Shown: one piece after another, positions 3,119 through 57,548 of the stretch
Position numbering within the stretch: position 1 is the stretch's first letter
Layout of the letters: each line of letters starts with the position of its first letter
DNA from: a virus
DNA length: 59,873 bases
Reading direction: 5' to 3' (one strand)
IMG/VR virus record: IMGVR_UViG_3300025107_000085
Span: 1 to 59,873 of that record
Notes under the pieces: model-generated
What the model saw: only the letters and a program-made list of their open reading frames with translations
What the model was told of the DNA's origin: nothing
Database searches by the model: none
Program-made: the position numbers and the translations under genes

Positions 3119-4522
3119 ATGTCACCAACAATAGACATATTAAAATTGTTACAAAAAAGTACTGCCGCCTACGTGTATATTGTAGGCGGTTTTGTGAGAG
3201 ATTTGTTGCGAGGTAAAACAAACAATGATTTAGATATTGTTGTTCTGGGATTACCTGTAAAGGATCTTAAAAGTTTCTTATCAAAATATGGTGTATTTAA
3301 AGAGGTGACCCTGGCACAAACAAATGAATCTCTTAGAACAGCCATTTATCTATTTAAGGCACATAATGATGACTTAACAGCACAAATATCATTCCCAAGA
3401 AGGGGGAAGCTGGAAATAGCACATCATGAGAATACTTTAAAACAAGATGTTAAGGTGAGAGATTTCACTATCAACTCTTTATATTTACCCATAGACTATA
3501 AGTCTGTCACCGACGTGATAGATTTGAGTGGCGGGGTTGTGGATATACAGCGGAAGATCATCAAAGCAAATGGTGATCCTTATGCAGTTATAGAAGCATC
3601 CCCAATACGTATGTTAAGGGCAGTGTCACTGGCTTGTAGATCAGGTTACGTGATACACAAAGGTTTAAAAATAGCTATATCCGAAAGAACAGCTTTGATA
3701 AATAAGTGTCCACCAGACACCATACGATTGGAACTGAATAAGATATTGCTGTCTGAAAACCCATCAAGAGGATTTAAATTGTTGTATAATTTAGGCCTCT
3801 TAAAAGTAGTAATGCCTCAGTTACACGCTTGTTATGGTGTAACTCAAAGCAGTAAACATCATAAGTACGATGTCTTTGGACATTGTATTAAAGCATGCGA
3901 TCATACAGCTGCAAATTTAACTCTTAGGTTAGCCGCGCTGTTACATGACATAGGAAAACCACGCGCCAGAAGAATACATGAAAACGGTAACATTACCTTT
4001 CATAATCATGAGATCATAGGCGCTGGGTTGGCTGAAACTTTATTAAGTAAGCTAAATTATGACATCAATCTCAAAAAACAAGTATGTGATCTTATTCGGT
4101 TGCACATGTATTACTACACGCATGATTTCACAGACGCAGCTGTTCGTAGATTTGTAGTATCAATCGGTATTACAGAAGAGGATATAGACAACATTTCAAT
4201 GTATCCCCTGTTTCAATTACGAATGGCAGATAGGCTTGGTAACGGTTTCAAAAAACAGGCAGTAACACCACGCCAACTTGAGCTTGAAGCTAGGATAGTT
4301 AAGTGCTTTGGGGACCGCAACACATTCACGGTTAAGGAATTGGCTATAAATGGAAGTGACATAATGCGCTTTTGTAGTGTTAGTCCAGGACCATTAGTAG
4401 GAAAAACCTTAAATTATCTGTTGGATAAAGTACTTGAAGATCCAAGTGTAAATAACAAGGAAGACTTGATAAATTTGGCATGGAACAAAGTCAAAGGAGG
4501 CCGACGATTAGATTGTGAGTAG
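3119..4522 (+). CDS. cca: CCA-adding tRNA nucleotidyltransferase with HD domain
   Basis: Adds or repairs the 3'-CCA end of tRNAs using CTP and ATP. The N-terminus has the class II signature GGFVRDLL (23-30) and the metal-binding NDLDIVV (36-42). An RNA-binding domain follows, then an HD phosphohydrolase domain (LLHDIGKP at 274-281, FHNHEIIG at 295-302) as in E. coli-type enzymes. Length (467 aa) fits the HD-containing subfamily. Several tRNA genes in this window lack an encoded CCA, so the enzyme is relevant to them. The stop is TAG, with a TGA two codons further on. Confidence 0.92.
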   Translation: MSPTIDILKLLQKSTAAYVYIVGGFVRDLLRGKTNNDLDIVVLGLPVKDLKSFLSKYGVFKEVTLAQTNESLRTAIYLFKAHNDDLTAQISFPRRGKLEIAHHENTLKQDVKVRDFTINSLYLPIDYKSVTDVIDLSGGVVDIQRKIIKANGDPYAVIEASPIRMLRAVSLACRSGYVIHKGLKIAISERTALINKCPPDTIRLELNKILLSENPSRGFKLLYNLGLLKVVMPQLHACYGVTQSSKHHKYDVFGHCIKACDHTAANLTLRLAALLHDIGKPRARRIHENGNITFHNHEIIGAGLAETLLSKLNYDINLKKQVCDLIRLHMYYYTHDFTDAAVRRFVVSIGITEEDIDNISMYPLFQLRMADRLGNGFKKQAVTPRQLELEARIVKCFGDRNTFTVKELAINGSDIMRFCSVSPGPLVGKTLNYLLDKVLEDPSVNNKEDLINLAWNKVKGGRRLDCE

Positions 4523-4600
4523 TTTGTGTGAGTAGCATACTGTTCGTGTATGTGTTAAACAATGGCTATGTAAGACCTAACGGTGCTGAAAAGGATTGGA

Positions 4601-4630
4601 TTAACACACGGCATCAGTAAATAGTATAAT
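4601..4630 (+). promoter_or_regulatory. Sigma-70-type promoter for the non-coding region
   Basis: TTAACA (4601-4606), 18 bp spacer, perfect TATAAT (4625-4630). It lies just inside the 1 kb gene-free region after the CCA enzyme, so it probably starts an RNA near 4637 rather than an mRNA. Confidence 0.55.
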
Positions 4631-4937
4631 AGTATAGATAAGGCTAATGCACCTTAAACCCTCTCCTGACGGTTTTTGCCGGAAATTTTTACGTCAGAAT
4701 CTTTCCCGTTCCAAAGATTTCGGTAACTGTGACGAGAAAGCTTAATTCAATCACGCTGGTGATGAGCTGTAAGTTACACATAATATTTGCAGATTTGATT
4801 ATGTAATCCTGATACATCAGGCGAGATAAATCTGTCAAGAGTCTATGGTTTTTATTTGATTACTTTCTTTTTCCATATATGAAAACTCTTGTAGGCCATA
4901 AAATGAAATTGTAACGATATAGAGAGGCTTTATAGGT

Positions 4938-4962
4938 TAAGTCCAGTTCGAATCCGGGCTTA
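4938..4962 (+). other. T-arm-like hairpin
   Basis: TAAGTCCAG and CCGGGCTTA form a 9-pair stem with one A-C mismatch around the classic T-loop TTCGAAT. No matching acceptor or anticodon stem sits at tRNA spacing, so it is a T-arm mimic, not a tRNA gene. Confidence 0.45.
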
Positions 4963-4969
4963 TACTAAA

Positions 4970-5002
4970 CTGATGTGATCTATCATTAAGATCGACAGTC
5001 AG
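4970..5002 (+). other. D-arm-like hairpin with GATC/GATC stem
   Basis: CTGA-TGT-GATC pairs with GATC-ACA-TCAG (two single-base bulges) around the loop TATCATTAA. The GATC/GATC stem with a 9-base loop is the same size as the D-arm of the tRNA mimic at 5274-5290, although this loop lacks the conserved GG. Confidence 0.4.
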
Positions 5003-5067
5003 GGGATAGCTATACGTAAAGAGCATGTCCAGCAAAGACAGGCAGGCGCAAATCCTGCGTATCCCCA
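5002..5067 (+). ncRNA. Short tRNA-like unit with GCA anticodon-like loop (Cys-like)
   Basis: GGGGATA (5002-5008) and TATCCCC (5060-5066) give a perfect 7-bp acceptor-like stem followed by A. A TGTC/GACA stem carries the loop CAGCAAA (GCA in the anticodon position, but A instead of U at position 33), and GCAGG/CCTGC carries the loop CGCAAAT instead of a T-loop. The unit is about 66 nt with no proper variable region or D-arm. It is either a decayed tRNA-Cys or a tRNA-like domain of the upstream RNA; I do not call it a functional tRNA. Confidence 0.4.
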
Positions 5068-5078
5068 CAATTATTTTT

Positions 5079-5176
5079 GTATGGTCGTGTTGTGTGAACA
5101 ATAACGGTTGACCCTTCCGTTATAGCACCTCCACAATGTTATGTTCCTTCCAGCACAGCATGACCATACATCTTTT
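5079..5176 (+). ncRNA. Y-RNA-like hairpin element 1 (divergent)
   Basis: An 11-bp closing stem (GTATGGTCGTG 5079-5089 with CATGACCATAC 5159-5169, one G-U) encloses an internal ATAACGG/CCGTTAT hairpin and ends in a T-run (TTTTTT, 5172-5177). The 3' side contains ATGTTCCTTCC, close to the conserved 3' segment of elements 2-4. It lacks the clear GGTGYAG and TACTTCA boxes, so its membership is weaker. Confidence 0.45.
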
Positions 5177-5182
5177 TTAATT

Positions 5183-5335
5183 TTATTGCATAAATGGTGC
5201 AGTATAGAGATACTTCATACCATAACCAGTAGGCCGCGGGTTCAAACCCCGCCTAACCACATAGTGGTTAGTAGATCAGACTGGTAGATCGACTGGCACA
5301 AAAAAGACTCTTTACGCCTTTCCTTTATGCAATAA
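5183..5335 (+). ncRNA. YrlA-type Y RNA with a circularly permuted tRNA mimic
   Basis: A perfect 12-bp stem (5183-5194 with 5324-5335) closes a Y-like stem with the shared TGGTGCAGT (5195-5203) and TACTTCA (5211-5217) boxes, an inner GTATAGAG/CTCTTTAC helix and CTTTCC on the 3' side. Beyond this lies a full tRNA fold in permuted order, 5226-5296: anticodon-stem 3' half CCAGT, 5-base variable loop, T-arm GCGGG-TTCAAAC-CCCGC, acceptor 3' strand CTAACCAC, loop ATA, acceptor 5' strand GTGGTTAG, U8-A9, D-arm GATC-AGACTGGTA-GATC, G26, anticodon-stem 5' half ACTGG. Bacterial YrlA RNAs are known to bind Ro60 and mimic tRNA this way, and a Ro60 gene follows 0.5 kb downstream. A T-run follows the stem. 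Confidence 0.85.
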
Positions 5336-5344
5336 TTCTTTTTA

Positions 5345-5436
5345 AGCTTAAAGCTGTAAATGGTGTAGTTCTCAGTTACTTCACTCGAAAATGGAAAAAA
5401 TGCTGAGTACGGTTTTCCTTTATGGCTTTATTTTGT
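5345..5436 (+). ncRNA. Y-RNA-like hairpin element 3
   Basis: A 12-bp closing stem (5349-5360 with 5419-5430, two G-U pairs), then the shared box TGGTGTAGTT (5361-5370), an inner CTCAG/CTGAG stem, the box TTACTTCAC (5376-5384), and TTTTCC just before the 3' strand of the closing stem. A T-rich tail (TTTATTTT) follows. The layout matches the Ro-binding half of the YrlA-like RNA upstream, without a tRNA module. Confidence 0.65.
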
Positions 5437-5443
5437 TAACCCT

Positions 5444-5535
5444 ATGTCTGGAATGGTGTAATAGTTCAGTTACTTCACGCTTATGAAACCAAACTACTGA
5501 CTATGTTTTTCCTTCCGGACATTCTTACTTTTAAC
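5444..5535 (+). ncRNA. Y-RNA-like hairpin element 4
   Basis: A 10-bp closing stem (ATGTCTGGAA 5444-5453 with TTCCGGACAT 5513-5522), then TGGTGTA (5454-5460), an inner TAGT(T)CAGT/ACTGACTA helix, TTACTTCAC (5470-5478) and TTTTTCC before the closing strand. The box order matches elements 2 and 3. It ends just upstream of the small coiled-coil gene that precedes Ro60. Confidence 0.65.
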
Positions 5536-5557
5536 TTATAAGTGTTGGAGATATACT

Positions 5558-5821
5558 ATGGCAGATGGCTTAGGGTTGTTCGGCAAGAACAATAGAAACA
5601 AAGATCGTAAGCAATTGGGCTCCATTTTGGATGCCTTCAATCAAATGAAAATGGATCTCGCCTCCTTTGTTGAAGAAAAAACAGGCCACATTTCCAGACT
5701 TGACAAAGAGCTTGCCCAGCTGGCCGGCGAAAAACACCATGCGACCAAAGACATGGAAAAAGCGATGGTCACGAAAACAAACATCGAAAAACTCATGGGT
5801 GAAAGTGGTAATTCCCTTTAA
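5558..5821 (+). CDS. Small coiled-coil protein upstream of Ro60
   Basis: An 87-residue, highly charged protein whose residues about 22-80 are predicted by eye to be one long helix with heptad-like spacing (MKMDLASFVEEKTGHISRL, then DKELAQLAGEKHHATKDMEK). No known family recognised. GGAG lies before the ATG, and the Ro60 ATG follows 20 bp after its stop, so it is likely a co-expressed partner, perhaps an oligomerisation or adaptor factor for the Ro60 particle. The role is inferred from position only. Confidence 0.7.
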   Translation: MADGLGLFGKNNRNKDRKQLGSILDAFNQMKMDLASFVEEKTGHISRLDKELAQLAGEKHHATKDMEKAMVTKTNIEKLMGESGNSL

Positions 5822-5841
5822 CAGCAACGGAGGCTTTTAAG

Positions 5842-7227
5842 ATGGCCAGAGTAAACAAAAAACCTCAGCCCTTATTTACACATGAAGGGGCCAAGGCAAA
5901 ACACATAACACCGGAGCAGGCCCTACGCAGATCAACCATGTGCTGCCTTCTATGGGAAAGAGAGTTTTATGAAAGCGGTGAAGCTATCGCTGACCGTATC
6001 TCGGAGCTGGTCGGTAAATGTGATCCAAAGTTTGTGGCACAATTGGCGGTGGGCCTTCGTAATGATATGAAGTTGCGCCATGCCCCCTTGTGGGTGGCAA
6101 ACAGCATGCTCAAATACACCGCCACAAAAAACTACGTGGCAGACGTGCTGCACGAAGTAATTCAACGACCGGACGAGCTGTGTGAGTTTCTGTCCCTGTA
6201 TTGGAAGAAGGGCAAGACCCCCATCGCTGCCCAGGTAAAACGCGGTTTGGCAAAAGCGGTAACAAAATTCAACGAGTATCAAATGGCCAAATGGAACAGG
6301 AAAACTGAAATAAAGTTACGTGATGTATTTCAGTTGATACATCCAAAACCGTTGAATGAGGAACAGGGGGCCATGTGGGGCAGGTTGATGGAGGGCACAT
6401 TGGCCACACCGGATACACGGGAGACTGCTTTGTCTTCTGGTAGAGATCAGAAAACGGAATGGACACGCCTGCTTCAGGAAAATAAACTTGGAGCTATTGC
6501 CTTGTTGGGTAGTCTCCGTCATATGACTGACTGTGGTGTTGACGAAGGCCTCATGCGGACAGCAATTCAAAAGATGTCTACGGATAAGGTATTGCCTTTC
6601 CGTTTCATATCCGCCGCCAGACATGCACCACATCTTGAAGACGTTTTGGAACAGAGTATGTTTAAATGTCTTGAAAGTCAGCCCAAGATTCCTGGTCGAA
6701 CGGTTTTATTGTTGGACCACAGTGGCAGTATGGATCAACCCCTGTCTGCAAAGTCAGAACTGACAAGAAGTGACGCAGCAATTGGTCTGGCATTATTGAT
6801 GCGTGAAGTTTGTGAAGAAGTGCTTATTTACACTTTTAGCAGACAATTGGTGCGTATTCCACCAAGGCATGGATTCGCCTTACGGGACGCCATAATGAAA
6901 AGCCAGGTTATGAGAGCCACGTTTCTTGGCACCGCCATAAATGCGATTTATTCCAAATCTGCTGTGACGTTGTCTAATAAACATATGATGACGGAGGTAG
7001 TATTCCCAGGACAAGGGCTAAATCCGGACAGGCTTGTAATTTTGACCGACGAGCAATCGAATGACCCAGTACCTGCTCCGCAAGGGGTTGGCTACATGAT
7101 AAATGTAGCCTCCAATGTAAATGGTGTTGGTTACCAGCCATGGGTACACATTGATGGTTGGAGTGAAGCAGTGGTGGCATGGTTACGCGAGTACGAGGCG
7201 GCCGGCTTCACCAAAGAAACAGGATAA
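5842..7227 (+). CDS. rsr: Ro60/Rsr ortholog (TROVE domain RNA-binding protein)
   Basis: Ro60 proteins are ring-shaped RNA chaperones that hold Y RNAs on the outside and the 3' ends of misfolded RNAs in the central hole; in bacteria Rsr works with exoribonucleases. The 461-residue protein has an alpha-helical HEAT-like N-terminal region (about 10-280; for example FVAQLAVGLRNDMKLRHAPL) and a C-terminal von Willebrand A domain with a complete MIDAS: D292-x-S294-x-S296, T364 (GTAIN) and D403 (LTDEQ). GGAGG precedes the ATG. Y-RNA-like elements lie directly upstream and more structured RNA follows, matching the bacterial rsr-yrlA arrangement. Confidence 0.92.
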   Translation: MARVNKKPQPLFTHEGAKAKHITPEQALRRSTMCCLLWEREFYESGEAIADRISELVGKCDPKFVAQLAVGLRNDMKLRHAPLWVANSMLKYTATKNYVADVLHEVIQRPDELCEFLSLYWKKGKTPIAAQVKRGLAKAVTKFNEYQMAKWNRKTEIKLRDVFQLIHPKPLNEEQGAMWGRLMEGTLATPDTRETALSSGRDQKTEWTRLLQENKLGAIALLGSLRHMTDCGVDEGLMRTAIQKMSTDKVLPFRFISAARHAPHLEDVLEQSMFKCLESQPKIPGRTVLLLDHSGSMDQPLSAKSELTRSDAAIGLALLMREVCEEVLIYTFSRQLVRIPPRHGFALRDAIMKSQVMRATFLGTAINAIYSKSAVTLSNKHMMTEVVFPGQGLNPDRLVILTDEQSNDPVPAPQGVGYMINVASNVNGVGYQPWVHIDGWSEAVVAWLREYEAAGFTKETG

Positions 7228-7355
7228 AGGTCTTCGTTCCTTTATTAGTTCTCATAAACTATATGACGAAATAGAGGCATCGCGCTTCTTATTTCTCATA
7301 TAGTGAGAACAAAAAGCAAACAAACGAGTGGGTTGGTGCGGTGGGATAGCGGTAA

Positions 7356-7405
7356 AAGTACTTAAAGGTGGTTTCATTGAATGAATTGCCTCCCTTTAAG
7401 TACTT
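7356..7405 (+). other. Strong hairpin after Ro60
   Basis: A 13-bp perfect stem, AAGTACTTAAAGG (7356-7368) with its complement at 7393-7405, closes a 24-base loop. No T-run follows, so it is not a standard terminator. It begins the 0.5 kb gene-free stretch between Ro60 and the acidic protein. Confidence 0.5.
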
Positions 7406-7493
7406 AACCAGGTGGTGGTTATAGTTAACACTAGTCTTTTGCAAGAGAAAGTGTCTTGAAAAATACTCTGTATACTATAATCGCTGCCTGGTT
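7406..7493 (+). ncRNA. Candidate structured RNA downstream of Ro60
   Basis: Two nested 7-bp helices, AACCAGG/CCTGGTT (7406-7412 with 7487-7493) and TTATAGT/ACTATAA (7419-7425 with 7474-7480), separated by an internal loop with GGTGG on the 5' side. The shape is like the Y elements upstream, but the TACTTCA box is absent between the stems; a TTACTTCAC copy lies separately at 7561-7569. It could be a further Ro60 ligand. Confidence 0.4.
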
Positions 7494-7617
7494 TATAAGT
7501 TTGATCTTTTGTTAGTAACAAAATATATCTGACATGTATCATTAATATGAAAAGCACACCTTACTTCACATATGAATGGTATAGCAACAAATTACTACGT
7601 AAGCTGTAGCTCAGATA

Positions 7618-7718
7618 GGGGAATTCACGGTTTTTTCGCAATCAACGGGAATGAAAACAATCCTTCGCCTTATGGAGGCGGGTTCAGCCGTATCCGTTAT
7701 AGAATTCCCCGCCTTTTT
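7618..7718 (+). promoter_or_regulatory. Candidate attenuator or riboswitch with mutually exclusive hairpins
   Basis: GGGGAATTC (7618-7626) pairs perfectly with GAATTCCCC (7702-7710). The 3' strand of that helix overlaps CCCGCC (7708-7713), which can instead pair with GGCGGG (7677-7682) and is followed directly by TTTTT (7714-7718), a typical intrinsic terminator. GGCG (7677-7680) can also pair locally with CGCC (7666-7669). This is the layout of a terminator/antiterminator switch in the leader of the acidic-protein and ATP-grasp operon. I do not recognise a known ligand class. Confidence 0.5.
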
Positions 7719-7744
7719 AATTTATAATGGTGGGGTATTTATTT

Positions 7745-8059
7745 ATGAGTAAAGAGTTCGATATTGACGACTTTATGTTTGGTCTGGGATTTGGTTACGA
7801 CCTCTCCTGCGGTGAAAACGGAAGAGACTCGTTTGATTATGACCCAGAAGTTGATGATGTTCTTGAAATCTCTGCTGCTGATAGAGCAGATCTTATAGAA
7901 GATCTCGTCGAAATGACCGCTAACATGGAAGCAGGTGTTTCAAGTGCATCAACAGAGTTCGAGAAGGTGAGATTTTCAGATAGTATAATGGATCGAAGAA
8001 AACCTTTCGAGGTTTTTGTAGATCATTACATTCAGGATCTTAACGATGGCCGAAGATAA
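7745..8059 (+). CDS. Small acidic hypothetical protein
   Basis: A 104-residue acidic protein starting MSKEFDIDDFMFG; the GGTGGGG at 7728-7734 supports the ATG at 7745 rather than one at 7727. It contains many Asp/Glu (for example FDYDPEVDDVLEIS) and no recognised motif. It overlaps the following ATP-grasp gene by 14 bp, so the two are coupled. It could be a substrate or cofactor of that ligase, but this is inference. Confidence 0.7.
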   Translation: MSKEFDIDDFMFGLGFGYDLSCGENGRDSFDYDPEVDDVLEISAADRADLIEDLVEMTANMEAGVSSASTEFEKVRFSDSIMDRRKPFEVFVDHYIQDLNDGRR

Positions 8060-9148: not shown

Positions 9149-9676
9149 GTGAATAAAGCACTGATCATTATAGATATGCTTAATGACTTCATCATGGAAA
9201 ACGGCGCTTTATATTGTGGCAAAGCAGCTTCGGATATAGTAGCGCGGATAAAGGATAAATTGGAGTTGGCAAGAAAAAATAATGATGTGGTTATTTTTCT
9301 GTGCGATGCTCATAAATCGTACGATAAGGAATTTCAACGTTTTCCAAAGCACGCTGTAATACATACAGTAGGTGCTCAAATAATTAACGATCTTTCCCCG
9401 GTGGAAAGAGGCCGCGAGTATGTTATTAAGAAAACGCGTTATAGTGGTTTCTATAATACCAATTTGAATGTGGTATTAAAATTAAATAATATAACACATG
9501 CGGAAGTTGTTGGTGTTTGTACCCACATCTGTGTGATGGACACGGTAGGGGGATTAGCCAACCGGGACATAGCTACTTTTATTGATAAGTCAGCTGTTGC
9601 TGATTTTGACAAGGCTGCTGCAGACGCCGCTCTCCTGCGTATGCAGTCTATATACGGAACAGTCGTGGTTCCGTAG
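9149..9676 (+). CDS. pncA: Nicotinamidase (isochorismatase-like hydrolase)
   Basis: Converts nicotinamide to nicotinate and ammonia, the entry step of the Preiss-Handler NAD route. The 175-residue protein has the catalytic Asp (D9 in ALIIIDMLNDF), Lys (VIKKTRYSGF, about 92-101) and Cys (C128 in GVCTHICVMDT), plus the metal-site segment CDAHKSYD (52-59). The start is GTG, supported by AGGTAA upstream. The downstream NAPRTase, NadD and NadE genes make nicotinamidase a better call than isochorismatase. The stop is TAG. Confidence 0.85.
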   Translation: MNKALIIIDMLNDFIMENGALYCGKAASDIVARIKDKLELARKNNDVVIFLCDAHKSYDKEFQRFPKHAVIHTVGAQIINDLSPVERGREYVIKKTRYSGFYNTNLNVVLKLNNITHAEVVGVCTHICVMDTVGGLANRDIATFIDKSAVADFDKAAADAALLRMQSIYGTVVVP

Positions 9677-9737
9677 TTGTTTCTCCAATGATGGGCGGGG
9701 TGGGAGACTACCCTGCCCATCTCTTACGAGGACCATA

Positions 9738-10598
9738 ATGAAAAAGATAAGCACTTTATCTGTTGTAACCGGCACCAATAGCTGCAATGCAAAATGCCCA
9801 TTTTGTATAGCCAGAATGACTCCGCAACAAAGTGCTATGAACAACATCAATTATCGTAATTTGGACATAGCCTGTCGCTTGGCGGAAAAAGCCGGCGCTG
9901 TAACCGCACTAATAACTGGTAAAGGTGAACCTACCTTATACCCAGATACCATCTCTTTCTACCTCACAAACCTCTCCAAGTACTTTCCAATCCTTGAATT
10001 ACAAACCAACGGTTTGATACTCCCCGATGATAAATATAATAAGTTTTTAAAAAGTTGGTACGGTCTTGGCCTTACAACAATATCCTTATCCATCGTACAT
10101 TATAATGACTCCCGAAATAAGGAAATATACACTGGTAATAGGGATTATATCAACTTACAATTGTTAATAAACAAGTTGCATAATTACGGATTTAGTGTTA
10201 GACTAAGTGTAATCGCGCTGAAAAATTATATAGATTCACCGATGGAAATCGCCCGTATGATTAAATTTGCTAAGGATAATAAAGTTGCACAACTAACCAT
10301 AAGACCTATGGTAGTTTATGAAGCAACGGCCAATAAAAAAGTTTTAAACTGGGCATTATCCCACACCATCGGCCCTAATTGGGAAGACATTGTTGCTAAA
10401 ACACTAAGTAAAATAAAAAATACCTTCTTAATGAATCTTACTCATGGTGGTAAAGTATACGATGTCTCCGGACAAAATGTGTGTTTCAATACTTGTTTAA
10501 CTTTAAACCCAAACGAGGATGAATTGAGGCAATTAATTTATTTTCCTGATGGAAAAATAACCTATGATTGGAGATATAAGGGAGCTAGAATAATATGA
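9738..10598 (+). CDS. Radical SAM protein in the NAD operon
   Basis: Binds a 4Fe-4S cluster and S-adenosylmethionine through C16-x3-C20-x2-C23 (CNAKCPFC). A GEP-like motif (GKGEPTL) follows near residue 56. The 286-residue length fits a core radical SAM domain with a short C-terminal extension. An open frame extends upstream, but CGAGGA before the ATG at 9738 supports this start. It lies between nicotinamidase and nicotinate phosphoribosyltransferase and overlaps the latter by ATGA. Its reaction is unknown; a link to NAD is suggested only by position. Confidence 0.8.
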   Translation: MKKISTLSVVTGTNSCNAKCPFCIARMTPQQSAMNNINYRNLDIACRLAEKAGAVTALITGKGEPTLYPDTISFYLTNLSKYFPILELQTNGLILPDDKYNKFLKSWYGLGLTTISLSIVHYNDSRNKEIYTGNRDYINLQLLINKLHNYGFSVRLSVIALKNYIDSPMEIARMIKFAKDNKVAQLTIRPMVVYEATANKKVLNWALSHTIGPNWEDIVAKTLSKIKNTFLMNLTHGGKVYDVSGQNVCFNTCLTLNPNEDELRQLIYFPDGKITYDWRYKGARII

Positions 10599-11914
10599 AA
10601 TCAACGGCAGACTTTCACATGAGACCATTAATAAACAGTTTATTGGATAATGACGCGTATACATTTTATATGTGCCAATTCATACTAAGCAGATTTAAAG
10701 GTACCATTGCTAAATATAAATACAAATGCCGTAATGGTAACGGTTTTCCTGCTGACATTAGTTATGATCAAAAACACTCATTCGTAGCAATGATGAATAG
10801 TCAAATAGACTCTTTCTGTAAATTACGATTTAATGAAACGGAAATTCGATTTTTACGGGGGACAGGAAAATTTAAAGAGTACTTCTTAGATTTTCTTAGA
10901 ACACTTACTTTGGATAGATCTCATATAAAAGCTACACTTGTAGGTGGTGCTTTATATATTGAGATAGAAGGCCCAATAGAACAGGTAATCTGGTATGAAA
11001 CACCGGTGCTTGCTTTAAATAGCGAGCTGTATTATCGTTTTTATGATATCACACTGGACAAATATATTGACAATCAAGCCAACTTTAAACCAGCGTATTT
11101 ATTTACAATAAAAAATAGTGAGAGACATGCAAATAGTTTAAATGTGGCTAGGAAAAAGTTGCTCGCTAAAATAGAGAAGATACGTAAAACCAATCTACCC
11201 GGTTTCAATATCATTGATTTTGGAACAAGAAGGAGGGCTGCATTTGATTGGCATGAGAAGGTAGTGGCCACACTTCACAAGGAAATACCTGATGTTTTAA
11301 AAGGTACCTCTAACTGTTATTTGGCCATGAAATATGGTTTGCCTATGATCGGTACTATGGCACATCAAATGTTTCAAATGTATCAACAAATTACTTCTGC
11401 CTATGATAGCCAGATAGACTTGCTGACTGCTTGGCGAGAGGAGTATGGGGATAAATTATTAATTGCTTTAAGTGATATATTTGGCTTTGAAGCCTTCCTA
11501 TCCGATTTTAGGCACTTTGCTGATCAATACTCTGGGGTTCGCCATGACAGCGGTAACCCTTATATTTGGTGTGACAAATTGTTGCAGCTTTATAATAAGC
11601 GGAATATTGACGCAAAGAGTAAGACTGCTGTTTTTAGTGACGGCTTAGATGTGGATAAAGCCCTCAATCTTTACGCCACTTTTTACAACAAAATAAATGT
11701 AGCCATTGCTATTGGCACCAACCTTACAAATGATACAGATGTCGAAGCATTACAAATTGTAATTAAACTCGTTGAGTTTAACCACGGCCCGGTAGCAAAA
11801 GTGAGTGACTCTCCTGGAAAAGGGATGTGCGAGAGTAAAGAGTATGAGGAATACATAAGCTACATTGTAAGCCGAAAAGAAAAGGAGTACAAAGAATGGC
11901 TAGAAAACAAGTAG
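10595..11914 (+). CDS. pncB: Nicotinate phosphoribosyltransferase
   Basis: Joins nicotinate to PRPP to form nicotinate mononucleotide. The 439-residue protein begins with the family N-terminus (LINSLLDNDAYTFYMCQF), has the MIGTMAHQMFQMYQ segment containing the likely phosphorylated His, the FGTRRRAAFD strand, and VRHDSGNPYIW followed by FSDGLDVDKAL for phosphate and ribose binding. Length fits the family. The gene is coupled to the radical SAM gene (ATGA) and overlaps NadD by 19 bp. The HDSGNP segment resembles the nicotinamide enzyme too, but the nicotinamidase nearby fits the nicotinate route. Confidence 0.9.
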   Translation: MKSTADFHMRPLINSLLDNDAYTFYMCQFILSRFKGTIAKYKYKCRNGNGFPADISYDQKHSFVAMMNSQIDSFCKLRFNETEIRFLRGTGKFKEYFLDFLRTLTLDRSHIKATLVGGALYIEIEGPIEQVIWYETPVLALNSELYYRFYDITLDKYIDNQANFKPAYLFTIKNSERHANSLNVARKKLLAKIEKIRKTNLPGFNIIDFGTRRRAAFDWHEKVVATLHKEIPDVLKGTSNCYLAMKYGLPMIGTMAHQMFQMYQQITSAYDSQIDLLTAWREEYGDKLLIALSDIFGFEAFLSDFRHFADQYSGVRHDSGNPYIWCDKLLQLYNKRNIDAKSKTAVFSDGLDVDKALNLYATFYNKINVAIAIGTNLTNDTDVEALQIVIKLVEFNHGPVAKVSDSPGKGMCESKEYEEYISYIVSRKEKEYKEWLENK

Positions 11915-12504
11915 CCTTATTTGGTGGGGCATTTGATCCTGTAACATTAGGACATATATTGGTAGCAAAGATGATGCTCGGGGTAGCAAATTTTGATAAG
12001 ATATGGTTCTTGCCGAGCTATCATTCCTGGAATGATAAAAATATGCAGGACGCCAATCACCGTTTAAACATGTTAAAGTTAACATGTAATGACATTTCTG
12101 ATAAACGTATAAATGTTTGTTCCTACGAGATAGCCAACAAGTTGATAGAACCAACAGTTGTTGTTTTAGATCGCTTGGCCTCATATATCGATGCGGATTT
12201 TTTCTTTTGTATCGGAACAGATCAAGCCGCAGAGATTGAAACTTGGCATGAGTGGGAACGTTTGATAAGTCAGTACTCATTTGTAGTTATGGAGCGTCCA
12301 GGTAGCCCGTATGTAGAGGGCAGTTGGTATACTATCGGAAAACATAAATTTGTTAAATGTACCTCCGGCATAGGCAACGTGTCTTCTACTGAGGTACGTA
12401 AGGAAATTGCCAGAGAGGGTATATCATACAATGTGACACAATCTGTAATGCAATATATTAAAGATAATAACCTTTATAAGGGGGCTTTGAAAATAAATGC
12501 TTAG
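11896..12504 (+). CDS. nadD: Nicotinate-nucleotide adenylyltransferase
   Basis: Transfers AMP from ATP to nicotinate mononucleotide, giving deamido-NAD. The 202-residue protein has the nucleotidyltransferase signature GGAFDPVTLGH (10-20, the T/HxGH motif) and the C-terminal SSTEVRKEI motif that replaces ISSTxIR of the family. It overlaps both neighbours, so the four enzymes are one translational unit. It ends in TAG followed two codons later by a second TAG. Confidence 0.92.
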   Translation: MARKQVALFGGAFDPVTLGHILVAKMMLGVANFDKIWFLPSYHSWNDKNMQDANHRLNMLKLTCNDISDKRINVCSYEIANKLIEPTVVVLDRLASYIDADFFFCIGTDQAAEIETWHEWERLISQYSFVVMERPGSPYVEGSWYTIGKHKFVKCTSGIGNVSSTEVRKEIAREGISYNVTQSVMQYIKDNNLYKGALKINA

Positions 12505-13327
12505 TATTAGTGCAGAGTACAATAAAATGTATAACAACATTTTGGCCGAGGGTATGGAGTACGTGCGAAGGAGCCGTCTGGAATCTTTGGTGATTGGTAT
12601 TTCAGGTGGTATAGATAGTGCCTTAGTGGCTGCCTTGGCACGCGTTATTTGTGACGAGACGGGTATTACCCTTATAGGCAGAAGTATGCCTATTGTAACA
12701 AATAAACCGGATGAAATAGCACGCGCTTCCGCCATTGGTAAATGCTTTTGTGATGACTTTGAGACAGTATCCTTGGATGATGTCTACAATAATCTGTATA
12801 AATCCATATCAAATCCGGCCAGGCATGATATCACTACAAAAGCAGAGAGGATTCGCCGTGGTAATGTAAAAGCAAGAACTCGCATGATACTACTGTATGA
12901 TTTGGCCCATCTTAATAACGGTCTTGTTTTGTCAACAGATAATTATACGGAGCTGCTGCTTGGCTTTTGGACAATGCATGGTGATGTTGGCGACTATGGC
13001 ATGATACAGAATCTGTGGAAAACTGAAGTGTACGGGCTGGCGGCTTGGCTCTGTAAAAAGTATGCCATGAACGACGCCGTGGATAAAGCAGAAGCACTTA
13101 ACGCGTGTATAACAGCGGTACCGACTGATGGTCTGGGTGTAACCGACAGTGATTTCGATCAACTCGGCCTTCGTCGCTACACAGACATCGACAACGTCCT
13201 ACTCAAATACATCACAGATGGTGTGGAAGAGGATGATAGTCCGGTTGTGCTTCGCTACAAAAATACGCATTACAAAAGGAATAACCCAATAAATCTTACA
13301 CGAAATAAGATTTTGGGAATAATGTAA
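12497..13327 (+). CDS. nadE: NAD synthetase (ammonia-dependent type)
   Basis: Converts deamido-NAD to NAD with ATP and ammonia. The 276-residue protein has the PP-loop SGGIDS (36-41) and the STDNYTELLLGFWTMHGD segment that binds deamido-NAD, and lacks the N-terminal glutaminase domain of the long form, so ammonia is the likely nitrogen source. It starts inside the NadD stop region. With the three enzymes upstream it closes a complete route from nicotinamide to NAD. Confidence 0.93.
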   Translation: MLSISAEYNKMYNNILAEGMEYVRRSRLESLVIGISGGIDSALVAALARVICDETGITLIGRSMPIVTNKPDEIARASAIGKCFCDDFETVSLDDVYNNLYKSISNPARHDITTKAERIRRGNVKARTRMILLYDLAHLNNGLVLSTDNYTELLLGFWTMHGDVGDYGMIQNLWKTEVYGLAAWLCKKYAMNDAVDKAEALNACITAVPTDGLGVTDSDFDQLGLRRYTDIDNVLLKYITDGVEEDDSPVVLRYKNTHYKRNNPINLTRNKILGIM

Positions 13328-44473: not shown

Positions 44474-44544
44474 TGTCCCGTAGAGGAATTGAACCCCTTT
44501 AAGCGAGTTTAGAGTTCGCCGCAACGCCTGTCTGCCAACGGGAC
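44474..44544 (-). tRNA. Suppressor tRNA, anticodon CUA (reads UAG)
   Basis: Cloverleaf: acceptor GTCCCGT/ACGGGAC, D-arm GCAG-ACAGGCG-TTGC, anticodon arm GCGAA-CTCTAAA-CTCGC (U33, anticodon CUA, A37; the closing A31-C39 is a mismatch), 4-base variable loop, T-arm AGGGG-TTCAATT-CCTCT, A73. CCA is not encoded. It starts 1 bp after the TAA of the glycosylase gene, so it must be cut from a shared transcript. Which amino acid it carries cannot be read from sequence alone. TAG ends about fifteen genes in this window. Confidence 0.8.
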
Positions 44545-56665: not shown

Positions 56666-57436
56666 TTATACTACTTCTAATGTAGCTGGTGCTGCCCCTT
56701 CAAAAATAACTTCTTCTTTATTAGAAAGTTTTGATAATGGGGGAATAAGATATTCAGCTACAATGTGGCGATTTACAAATATATCATTTAACCTTGTAGC
56801 CTTTTTAATCAGCTGTCTTTTAACATAAGTACCACGTTTAAAGTGTGTAGGGTAATCGTTCCAATTTACACCTTTTCTCATAAGCATGTCTAACATCTCT
56901 TCCCTATTTTTAGAGTGCAGTTCTTTGTGTGCATAATGGAATCTTGCTGCCATAGAGACACTGTTTTTAATTGCATCTAATTCACGCCATACAAGTGTGT
57001 TGACTGCCTCCATTTTAGTAGGAACCACCCAAGCACGACAATCAAATAGACCAGCATCTTCACCTTTTTCAGGAATAACTTCTTTAAGATAAGAAGAAAA
57101 CATAACTGATGCCGCTGAAGCCAATACAGAAACAATCTTCTGTATTTTTCCATCAAAATAAACTTGTTTATTATAACTATCGCTATATAAAATAAGGCTT
57201 ATTTCATCACTTTGGGTGTAACCTATTATTGCGTTTGACATTGAAACTAACGCCCCAGTGACATTTATCATTAAATGACTTAAACGTTCATCATAAGGCC
57301 TTTTAAGGCCTTTTGTAAGTGTACTAAAACATTTACCATCCAATCTTACACATATAGGTAGTAAAGGAGTAAATTGTCTGCCTGACTCATAACGCTCTAA
57401 CAATTTCATCCTGTCACCCAGCGCATCTTTATTCAT
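56666..57436 (-). CDS. Thg1-like tRNA 3'-5' polymerase
   Basis: Thg1 and Thg1-like proteins add nucleotides to tRNA 5' ends in the 3'-5' direction. The 256-residue protein has the signature RLDGKCFSTLTK (two metal Asp region) and GYTQSDEISLI, followed by a basic helical part (KRGTYVKRQLIKKATR). Length matches bacterial Thg1-like proteins, which repair truncated tRNAs. No tRNA-His is seen here, so repair is more likely than G-1 addition. GGAGG precedes the ATG. Confidence 0.88.
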   Translation of the reverse strand: MNKDALGDRMKLLERYESGRQFTPLLPICVRLDGKCFSTLTKGLKRPYDERLSHLMINVTGALVSMSNAIIGYTQSDEISLILYSDSYNKQVYFDGKIQKIVSVLASAASVMFSSYLKEVIPEKGEDAGLFDCRAWVVPTKMEAVNTLVWRELDAIKNSVSMAARFHYAHKELHSKNREEMLDMLMRKGVNWNDYPTHFKRGTYVKRQLIKKATRLNDIFVNRHIVAEYLIPPLSKLSNKEEVIFEGAAPATLEVV

Positions 57437-57461: not shown

Positions 57462-57548
57462 AAAAAAAAAACGAGAGAAAAGTGATTAAACTGTTTTTGA
57501 GTTCTGATTAATGGTCAGAATGAAGTAAGTGTAATCTGCACTACTACC
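57462..57548 (-). ncRNA. Structured leader downstream of tRNA-Glu, possible Y-like element
   Basis: On the - strand: GTGCAG and TTACTTCA boxes similar to the Y elements near Ro60, a TTCTGA/TCAGAA hairpin, a GTG-ATTA/TAAT-CAC helix with a bulge, and a run of ten T. AAACG/CGTTT may close it. The match to the Y consensus is partial, so this is a suggestion. The T-run may also end the tRNA-Glu transcript. Confidence 0.3.

What the first reader, a model, noticed from the sequence alone, without database searches (positions are those of the whole stretch)
5183..5335. Phage-encoded YrlA RNA carrying a complete circularly permuted tRNA mimic
The sequence folds as a tRNA opened at the anticodon loop and closed at the acceptor end. 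All stems pair perfectly (acceptor 8 bp, D 4 bp, anticodon 5 bp, T 5 bp), and U8, A14, G15, G18, G19, A21, G26, C48, G53, T54, T55, C56, A58 and C61 are all present. The opened anticodon stem continues into a Y-RNA-like helix with a terminator tail. Bacterial YrlA RNAs are known to mimic tRN_A in this way and to bind Ro60, whose gene is 0.5 kb away. A Y RNA with a near-perfect tRNA core in a phage is, to my knowledge, not well described.
Basis: partly seen in the sequence, partly recalled or inferred. Interest (0 to 1): 0.92.

Follow-up and report, generated by a model that had tools for sequence, protein, structure and literature searches.

The report
Phage Y RNA with permuted tRNA domain
A virus of bacteria carries a small RNA that folds like a tRNA opened at the wrong place and sits beside the gene for its likely protein partner Ro60; the RNA is real, but RNAs of this kind turn out to be common beside Ro60 genes in phages.

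Summary
Window 5183-5335 reads as a Y RNA whose arm is a complete tRNA core opened at the anticodon and closed at the acceptor end, 0.5 kb upstream of a Ro60/TROVE gene. A covariance model built from 24 other phage Y RNAs, window excluded, finds it at 81.5 bits, E 1.8e-18; 27 of the model's 31 pairs change on both sides. Two more Y RNAs, without tRNA domain, follow at 5356-5427 and 5449-5521, and a possible one lies at 57467-57548, minus strand.

The novelty claim does not hold. Permuted tRNA cores occur on the Ro60 strand in 42 of 85 viral and 57 of 80 cellular Ro60 loci, and phage YrlA-type RNAs are mentioned in print. This is a new member of a known kind.

The stranger result lies in relatives. 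In 14 of 108 viral loci, crAss-like phages among them, the same fold is opened at the acceptor end instead: an ordinary-order tRNA whose anticodon arm is a Y RNA, sometimes with encoded CCA. The window shows no supported copy of that form.

The parts
5183..5335 (+). Y RNA 1, YrlA type: terminal and Ro-binding stems plus permuted tRNA-like domain
   Evidence: Inverted repeat 5183-5194/5324-5335; model R1, built without the window, 5190-5332, 81.5 bits, E 1.8e-18; Rfam YrlA 5203-5319, 34.9 bits, below cut-off
5226..5296 (+). circularly permuted tRNA core (anticodon 3' strand - T arm - closed acceptor hairpin - D arm - anticodon 5' strand)
5195..5216 (+). conserved 5' boxes UGGUG...UACUUC with the 5' strand of the inner Y stem 5202-5209 (partner 5308-5315)
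   Evidence: R1 alignment; motif scan of the Ro loci: 70 plus-strand against 2 minus-strand matches, overlapping matches and the window's own record included
5308..5323 (+). 3' strand of the inner Y stem and the UUUCC box (many relatives: CGCUUGUUCCC)
   Evidence: R1 alignment, alignment A3
5336..5346 (+). T-rich tail after the terminal stem, terminator-like
   Evidence: sequence; the terminator scan, which asks for G-C pairs in the stem, did not list it
5356..5427 (+). Y RNA 2, no tRNA domain
   Evidence: R1 36.1 bits E 3.2e-7; R2 42.0 bits E 3.7e-10
5449..5521 (+). Y RNA 3, no tRNA domain
   Evidence: R1 26.2 bits E 8.9e-5; R2 34.9 bits E 4.9e-8
57467..57548 (-). possible fourth Y RNA, without tRNA domain, next to a tRNA-Glu gene
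   Evidence: R1 E 0.0049, R2 20.5 bits E 0.0011; fold hardly better than shuffles, z -1.2, 25 of 200 as stable
5842..7227 (+). Ro60 (Rsr) protein, TROVE domain, with DxSxS residues D292, S294, S296 invariant in eight phage Ro60 proteins
   Evidence: Pfam TROVE E 1.1e-15; PHROG 850 RNA-binding protein E 1.6e-40; PDB TROVE proteins 9l5y, 9kop E about 1e-17; alignment A1

Best explanation
The locus encodes a phage Ro60 ribonucleoprotein. Y RNA 1 is a YrlA-type RNA: its two ends meet in stems with UGGUG/UUUCC and UACUUC boxes that would hold Ro60, and its far end is a tRNA-like domain, a tRNA opened at the anticodon with the acceptor closed by a 3-nt loop. Y RNAs 2 and 3 carry the Ro-binding part alone. 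Inferred, by analogy with studied bacterial systems: Ro60 sits on the stem, and the tRNA-like arm acts as the effector that docks host partners of tRNA (modification enzymes, and PNPase as in the RYPER machine), so that the phage steers decay or quality control of structured RNA during infection. Shown here: sequence, covariation in relatives, linkage to Ro60, family membership by model. Not shown: transcription, Ro60 binding, docking of any host enzyme. I hold the identity at about 0.93 and the effector mechanism at about 0.4.
For: Model built without the window hits it at E 1.8e-18 over its full length (E-values are rough). Alignment A3: 96.4% of cells paired, 27 of 31 pairs with a change on both sides, covariation score 0.82 against 0.21 in shuffles (0/500) and at most 0.19 when slid. 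In 85 viral Ro loci the 236 model matches listed at E up to 0.1 (the 24 building rows and some tRNA genes included) all lie on the strand of the Ro gene. TROVE protein. After un-permuting, ARAGORN calls the window core a tRNA, as it does 57 of 65 permuted domains (window included) and 16 of 16 with a 5-bp anticodon stem (partly circular, because the scan asked for acceptor, D and T stems). For the effector role: passages of PMC8394870 on DusA, TruB and PNPase.
Against: No expression or binding data. Rfam YrlA stays below its cut-off. The free minimum-energy fold of 5183-5332 forms neither the D arm nor the anticodon stem nor the inner Y stem. Two other copies of this locus are 100% identical over the 9,383 bases compared, so they add no independent variation. 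Promoter-like sites in 4500-7800 are no more frequent than in shuffles (8 against 7.4), and terminator-like sites likewise (4 against 3.3).
Confidence: 0.8

Rival explanations
1. Decoy: the Ro60-bound tRNA mimic soaks up host nucleases or other factors that attack tRNA during phage defence, protecting phage and host tRNAs.
For: The phage carries seven tRNA genes plus a CCA-adding enzyme and a Thg1-like protein, so tRNA upkeep seems to matter to it. Hughes et al. name a competitive-inhibitor role of YrlA as a possibility (passage of PMC7790460).
Against: The core has no anticodon loop, the usual target of anticodon nucleases; in Salmonella fragments of YrlA were not detected (same passages). 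No PADLOC defence family matched the four window proteins tried.
Confidence: 0.25
2. A permuted tRNA gene: the transcript is circularised and cut to give a working tRNA, as permuted tRNA genes of some algae and archaea do (recalled).
For: The tRNA stems and core residues are present; ARAGORN accepts the un-permuted string.
Against: The segment between the anticodon strands is the conserved Ro-binding Y domain, not an anticodon loop, and the acceptor strands are joined by 3 nt with no room for a CCA end.
Confidence: 0.02
3. A decayed tRNA gene or chance fold beside Ro60.
For: tRNA relics occur in phages (recalled); a degenerate tRNA-like stretch lies at 5002-5066. The full-length minimum-energy fold is not the cloverleaf.
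Against: Compensatory changes in every stem of the phage consensus, model match of the window, no minus-strand or shuffled hits in the scan.
Confidence: 0.02

Closest known systems
YrlA RNA of Salmonella and other bacteria (Rfam RF02553; structure 6CU1)
   Same: Gene beside Ro60, Ro-binding stem, tRNA-like domain that superposes on tRNA by circular permutation (6CU1: passages of PMC11472068), full-length alignment to the Rfam consensus
   Different: Rfam model scores 34.9, below 69; the window RNA has a full 5-bp anticodon stem, seen in 16 of 65 viral permuted domains scanned; no RtcB or RtcA among the 18 window proteins scanned with Pfam
Phage Ro60/Y RNA loci (Brevundimonas, Caulobacter, Rhizobium, Xanthomonas phages; many IMG/VR contigs)
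   Same: Permuted tRNA-like Y RNA on the Ro strand; the 36 viral rows all start within 1 kb upstream of the Ro match
   Different: Some hold several tRNA-like copies, for example three in L076; the window holds one plus two plain Y RNAs
Listeria phage CKA15 putative Y RNAs
   Same: Highly transcribed regions within 2 kb upstream of an Rsr-like gene (passage of PMC12282133)
   Different: The authors leave their nature open; no tRNA-like domain in the passages seen; sequence not compared here
Acceptor-open Y RNA/tRNA chimeras in relatives
   Same: Same arms and boxes
   Different: Opened at the acceptor end, Ro stem closed by a loop; none supported in the window

Membership tests
Ro60-associated bacterial and phage Y RNAs with tRNA-like domain (YrlA type) | Encoded next to a Ro60/TROVE gene, same strand | tested here: met
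   Ro60 5842-7227, 507 nt downstream
Ro60-associated bacterial and phage Y RNAs with tRNA-like domain (YrlA type) | Closed stem from the two ends with the conserved Ro-binding boxes | tested here: met
   R1 alignment over 5190-5332, inverted repeat
Ro60-associated bacterial and phage Y RNAs with tRNA-like domain (YrlA type) | tRNA-like domain: T arm, closed acceptor hairpin, D arm, in that order | tested here: met
   core fold; covariation in relatives
Ro60-associated bacterial and phage Y RNAs with tRNA-like domain (YrlA type) | Binds Ro60 | not testable with these tools
   needs pull-down
Ro60-associated bacterial and phage Y RNAs with tRNA-like domain (YrlA type) | Carries tRNA-type modifications (dihydrouridine, pseudouridine) | not testable with these tools
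   needs RNA
Rfam RF02553 YrlA (curated model) | Score at or above the gathering cut-off of 69 bits | tested here: not met
   34.9 bits, E 3.6e-5, full-length match; 0 of 15 other phage loci tried reach it either. Not filed under this model.
tmRNA / permuted tmRNA | Match to RF00023 or RF04321 | tested here: not met
   none in the window at gathering nor at E up to 10 in 4500-7800
Permuted tRNA gene | Anticodon loop and processable acceptor ends | tested here: not met
   Y domain in place of the loop, 3-nt acceptor loop
Acceptor-open Y RNA/tRNA chimera | Acceptor and D strands 5' and T and acceptor strands 3' of one Y module | tested here: not met
   R3 in the window (E up to 5): six matches at or within tRNA genes and two plus-strand ones overlapping Y RNA 1, 5119-5259 (E 6e-7, aligned through the T arm, first acceptor strand not paired well) and 5265-5411 (E 0.3)

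The most novel reading that the evidence does not exclude
Phage Ro60 RNPs use one RNA fold in two circular permutations. One, as in the window, is open at the Ro stem with the acceptor closed. The other, in crAss-like and other phages, is open at the acceptor with the Ro stem closed by a small loop, so that a Y RNA sits in the anticodon arm of an ordinary-order tRNA body, at times with an encoded CCA end. The second kind could be processed by RNase P, CCA-tailed or even charged, giving a Ro RNP with a true tRNA end. Tandem arrays of the first kind would yield the second when the 3' half of one copy is kept with the 5' half of the next.
Probability: 0.4. Interest if true: 0.72.

Novelty: new member of a known kind. 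Interest (0 to 1): 0.42.

Why it matters
It adds a clean phage case of tRNA mimicry by a Ro60-linked RNA and shows, by covariation, that such RNAs are a regular feature of phage Ro60 loci which the curated Rfam model did not reach in the 15 phage loci tried. The acceptor-open relatives would make the function of the tRNA-like arm directly testable, since one form could receive a CCA end and the other cannot.

Tried and rejected
A second tRNA-like assembly in the window (acceptor strands TAGTATAA 4622-4629 and TTATACTA 4960-4967, D arm 4632-4650, T arm 4942-4958 with one mismatch, 291-nt insert) looked like an acceptor-open chimera: 0 of 500 shuffles of the 3.3-kb stretch and 0 places in the rest of the plus strand gave such a set, though the minus strand of the window gave 1. 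I rejected it as unproven because its acceptor 5' strand overlaps a TATAAT box of the best promoter-like site (4601-4630), models R1, R2 and R3 list nothing there, and its likeness to Y RNA 1 is not significant (67 of 1000 shuffles as good).

Rfam beyond YrlA in 4500-7800: rli45, mir-2818, SNORD34 and sroH at E 0.7-6.9, taken as chance. Y RNA identity of the hairpin 5078-5170: very stable (z -5.7) but no R1 or R2 match.

Rows dropped: one search kept only permuted cores with recognisable boxes, 36 viral rows plus the window. A3 holds 24 of these 37; the window was left out on purpose and 12 others by hand for mixed reasons (long acceptor loops, second copies, ragged ends; not applied evenly, since three rows with loops of 10-12 were kept), before any pair was counted. 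A5 holds 12 sequences chosen; L010:5379-5518 was left out as deviant. R1 was run on 36 of 80 cellular loci, Rfam gathering on 15 of 85 viral loci. The loci are the best 80 of 395 viral and of 309 cellular relatives plus seven named phages, so the fractions are not those of a random sample. Of the 12 acceptor-open hits, L045:8046 and L078:5476 show no convincing Y module; of the 17, L045:8046 is discounted, leaving 16 in 14 of 108 viral loci.

Literature: Chen 2014, Sim and Wolin 2018 and 2020, Wang 2018 and Chen 2013 are not held, so I could not check whether the acceptor-open form is in print. The listings of searches (some capped) and the passages I read named no such form.

Full report
What was checked. 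The window is a 59,873-base virus record; two further IMG/VR contigs carry the same stretch, 100% identical over the 9,383 bases compared. The core alone folds as this cloverleaf. The minimum-energy fold of 5183-5332 keeps T arm and acceptor, but pairs the anticodon 3' strand with the D loop and loses the D arm and the inner Y stem. Comparison therefore carries the case.

Comparison. Ro60 relatives were found in 85 INPHARED records and in 395 stretches of viral contigs, of which the best 80 loci were kept; with seven named phages, and without the window copies, 85 viral loci were used. A strict scan for T arm, closed acceptor hairpin, D arm and anticodon strands gave 25 plus-strand hits in 23 of these, 0 on the minus strand and 0 in one shuffle of each locus; L015 repeats L014, and the L008 hit is weak. 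A scan that does not ask for the anticodon stem gave 54 plus and 0 minus in 42 of 85 viral loci, and 75 plus and 0 minus in 57 of 80 cellular loci. When the acceptor was not asked for, 70 distinct plus-strand anchors (the window's own record and tandem ordinary tRNA genes among them) had on average 5.6 of 7 acceptor pairs against 3.2 when partners were swapped.

Covariation. Twenty-four full-length phage Y RNAs, window excluded, were aligned (A3). RNAalifold, given no structure, returned the terminal stem, inner Y stem, T stem, acceptor hairpin and D stem: 31 pairs, 27 with changes on both sides. Counting gave 96.4% of cells paired and a covariation score of 0.82, against 0.21 for shuffles and at most 0.19 for slid partners. 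The rows came from a scan that asks for T, D and acceptor pairing, so for those stems the test is partly circular; pairing of the two Y stems was not asked for (only their sequence boxes were) and 13 of their 15 pairs change on both sides. The anticodon stem is not in the consensus. On 63 distinct viral permuted cores, chosen without regard to it, the canonical register pairs 3.2 of 5 positions against 1.9 when swapped (0 of 2000 permutations reach it); pairs 27-43 and 28-42 hold in 84%, the inner three in 37-63%. A full 5-bp stem as in the window is thus above the norm, 16 of 65 by the best register.

The window against the model. R1, built from A3, finds window 5190-5332 at 81.5 bits, E 1.8e-18, and the plain Y RNAs 5356-5427 and 5449-5521. 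R2, built from 27 phage Y RNAs without tRNA domain (A4), finds the latter two at E 3.7e-10 and 4.9e-8, and a weaker one on the minus strand at 57467-57548 (E 0.0011) next to a tRNA-Glu gene; its fold is unremarkable, so I call it possible. Rfam YrlA matches at 34.9 bits, under its cut-off of 69, and reaches the cut-off in none of 15 phage loci tried.

Partner and setting. 5842-7227 is a TROVE/Ro60 protein. Upstream lies a CCA-adding enzyme (3119-4522); a Thg1-like protein and seven tRNA genes, one with a CUA anticodon, lie further off. A promoter-like site at 4601-4630 matches 11 of 12 consensus positions, but such sites are no more frequent here than in shuffles.

Mechanism. By analogy with studied Ro60 systems (passages of PMC8394870 and PMC7790460), Ro60 grips the stem and the tRNA-like arm acts as effector for PNPase or tRNA enzymes. 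This is inference; nothing here shows transcription or binding. A decoy role against tRNA-cutting defence is the main rival.

Known or new. That Y RNA superposes on tRNA by circular permutation is in print for a bacterial Y RNA, 6CU1 (passages of PMC11472068; named as Salmonella YrlA in PMC8394870). That phages hold YrlA-type RNAs or Y RNAs is stated in PMC12282133 and PMC7765460 (passages), which cite Chen et al. 2014 and Sim and Wolin 2018; I recall the 2014 abstract as counting more than 250 bacterial and phage species, but the papers are not held. Hence: new member of a known kind.

What may be new. In Bacteroides phage crAss001 a tRNA in ordinary order (L010:5124-5267, Rfam tRNA 46.6 bits) holds the Y boxes inside what ARAGORN takes for a 70-nt intron. 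A scan for this acceptor-open form gave 17 hits in 14 of 108 viral loci and 2 in 2 of 80 cellular loci, none on the minus strand; I discount one, leaving 16. Twelve such RNAs (A5) fold without prior structure into acceptor, D, Y and T stems; acceptor, D and T pairing had guided their choice, but the Y stem had not, and 7 of its 8 pairs change on both sides. In L078 and L086 the Ro stem is closed by a UUCG loop, where acceptor-closed forms such as L024 close the acceptor with UUCG. Encoded CCA follows the acceptor in L042, L043, L188 and, among cellular loci, L130; the other hits listed lack it. Among ten loci fetched with the crAss001 protein (L170-L179), four gave acceptor-open hits in the strict scan and none a permuted one. 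The window itself has no supported copy.

Noticed in passing
L010:5124-5268 and L010:5379-5518 (crAss001, MH675552); L171, L172, L176, L177: Ordinary-order tRNAs with a Y RNA in the anticodon arm, downstream of the TROVE gene; not listed as features in the crAss001 record.
   Followed up: yes
window 5078-5170: Very stable long hairpin (z -5.7) just upstream of Y RNA 1 with a UUCCUUCC stretch like the 3' box of Y RNA 3; no model match.
   Followed up: partly
window 5002-5066: Degenerate linear tRNA-like stretch: acceptor GGGGATA/TATCCCC, T-arm-like hairpin, short D hairpin without GG; not called by ARAGORN.
   Followed up: partly
window 4622-4967: tRNA-like acceptor, D and T pieces around a 291-nt insert; acceptor strand overlaps a TATAAT box.
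   Followed up: partly
window 7356-7405 and 7580-7722: Structured non-coding stretches downstream of Ro60: a 13-bp perfect hairpin, and a GGGGAATTC...GAATTCCCC stem ending near a T run with a GTAGCTCAG box before it (fold z -1.7).
   Followed up: no
window 44474-44544 (-): tRNA with CUA anticodon (ARAGORN: Pyl), a likely amber suppressor, although 14 of 65 selected ORFs end in TAG.
   Followed up: no
window 9149-13327: Run of genes that looks like NAD salvage: isochorismatase family (nicotinamidase-like) and NAPRTase family by Pfam, then ORFs that look like nadD and nadE by eye.
   Followed up: no
window 56666-57436 (-): Thg1 (tRNA-His guanylyltransferase) family protein near the tRNA genes.
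   Followed up: no
L004:3311-3385 (Brevundimonas phage Gurke): Annotated tRNA-Ser overlaps an R1 match (3314-3447, 98.6 bits), so the annotation is probably half of a permuted Y RNA.
   Followed up: partly
L004:6887-7232 and L006:7289-7546: Rfam permuted tmRNA in Brevundimonas phages a few kb from Ro60.
   Followed up: no
L089 (contig titled Micrarchaeota MAG): Ro60 at 56% identity to the phage protein on a 4.9-kb contig; perhaps a phage contig in the bin.
   Followed up: no
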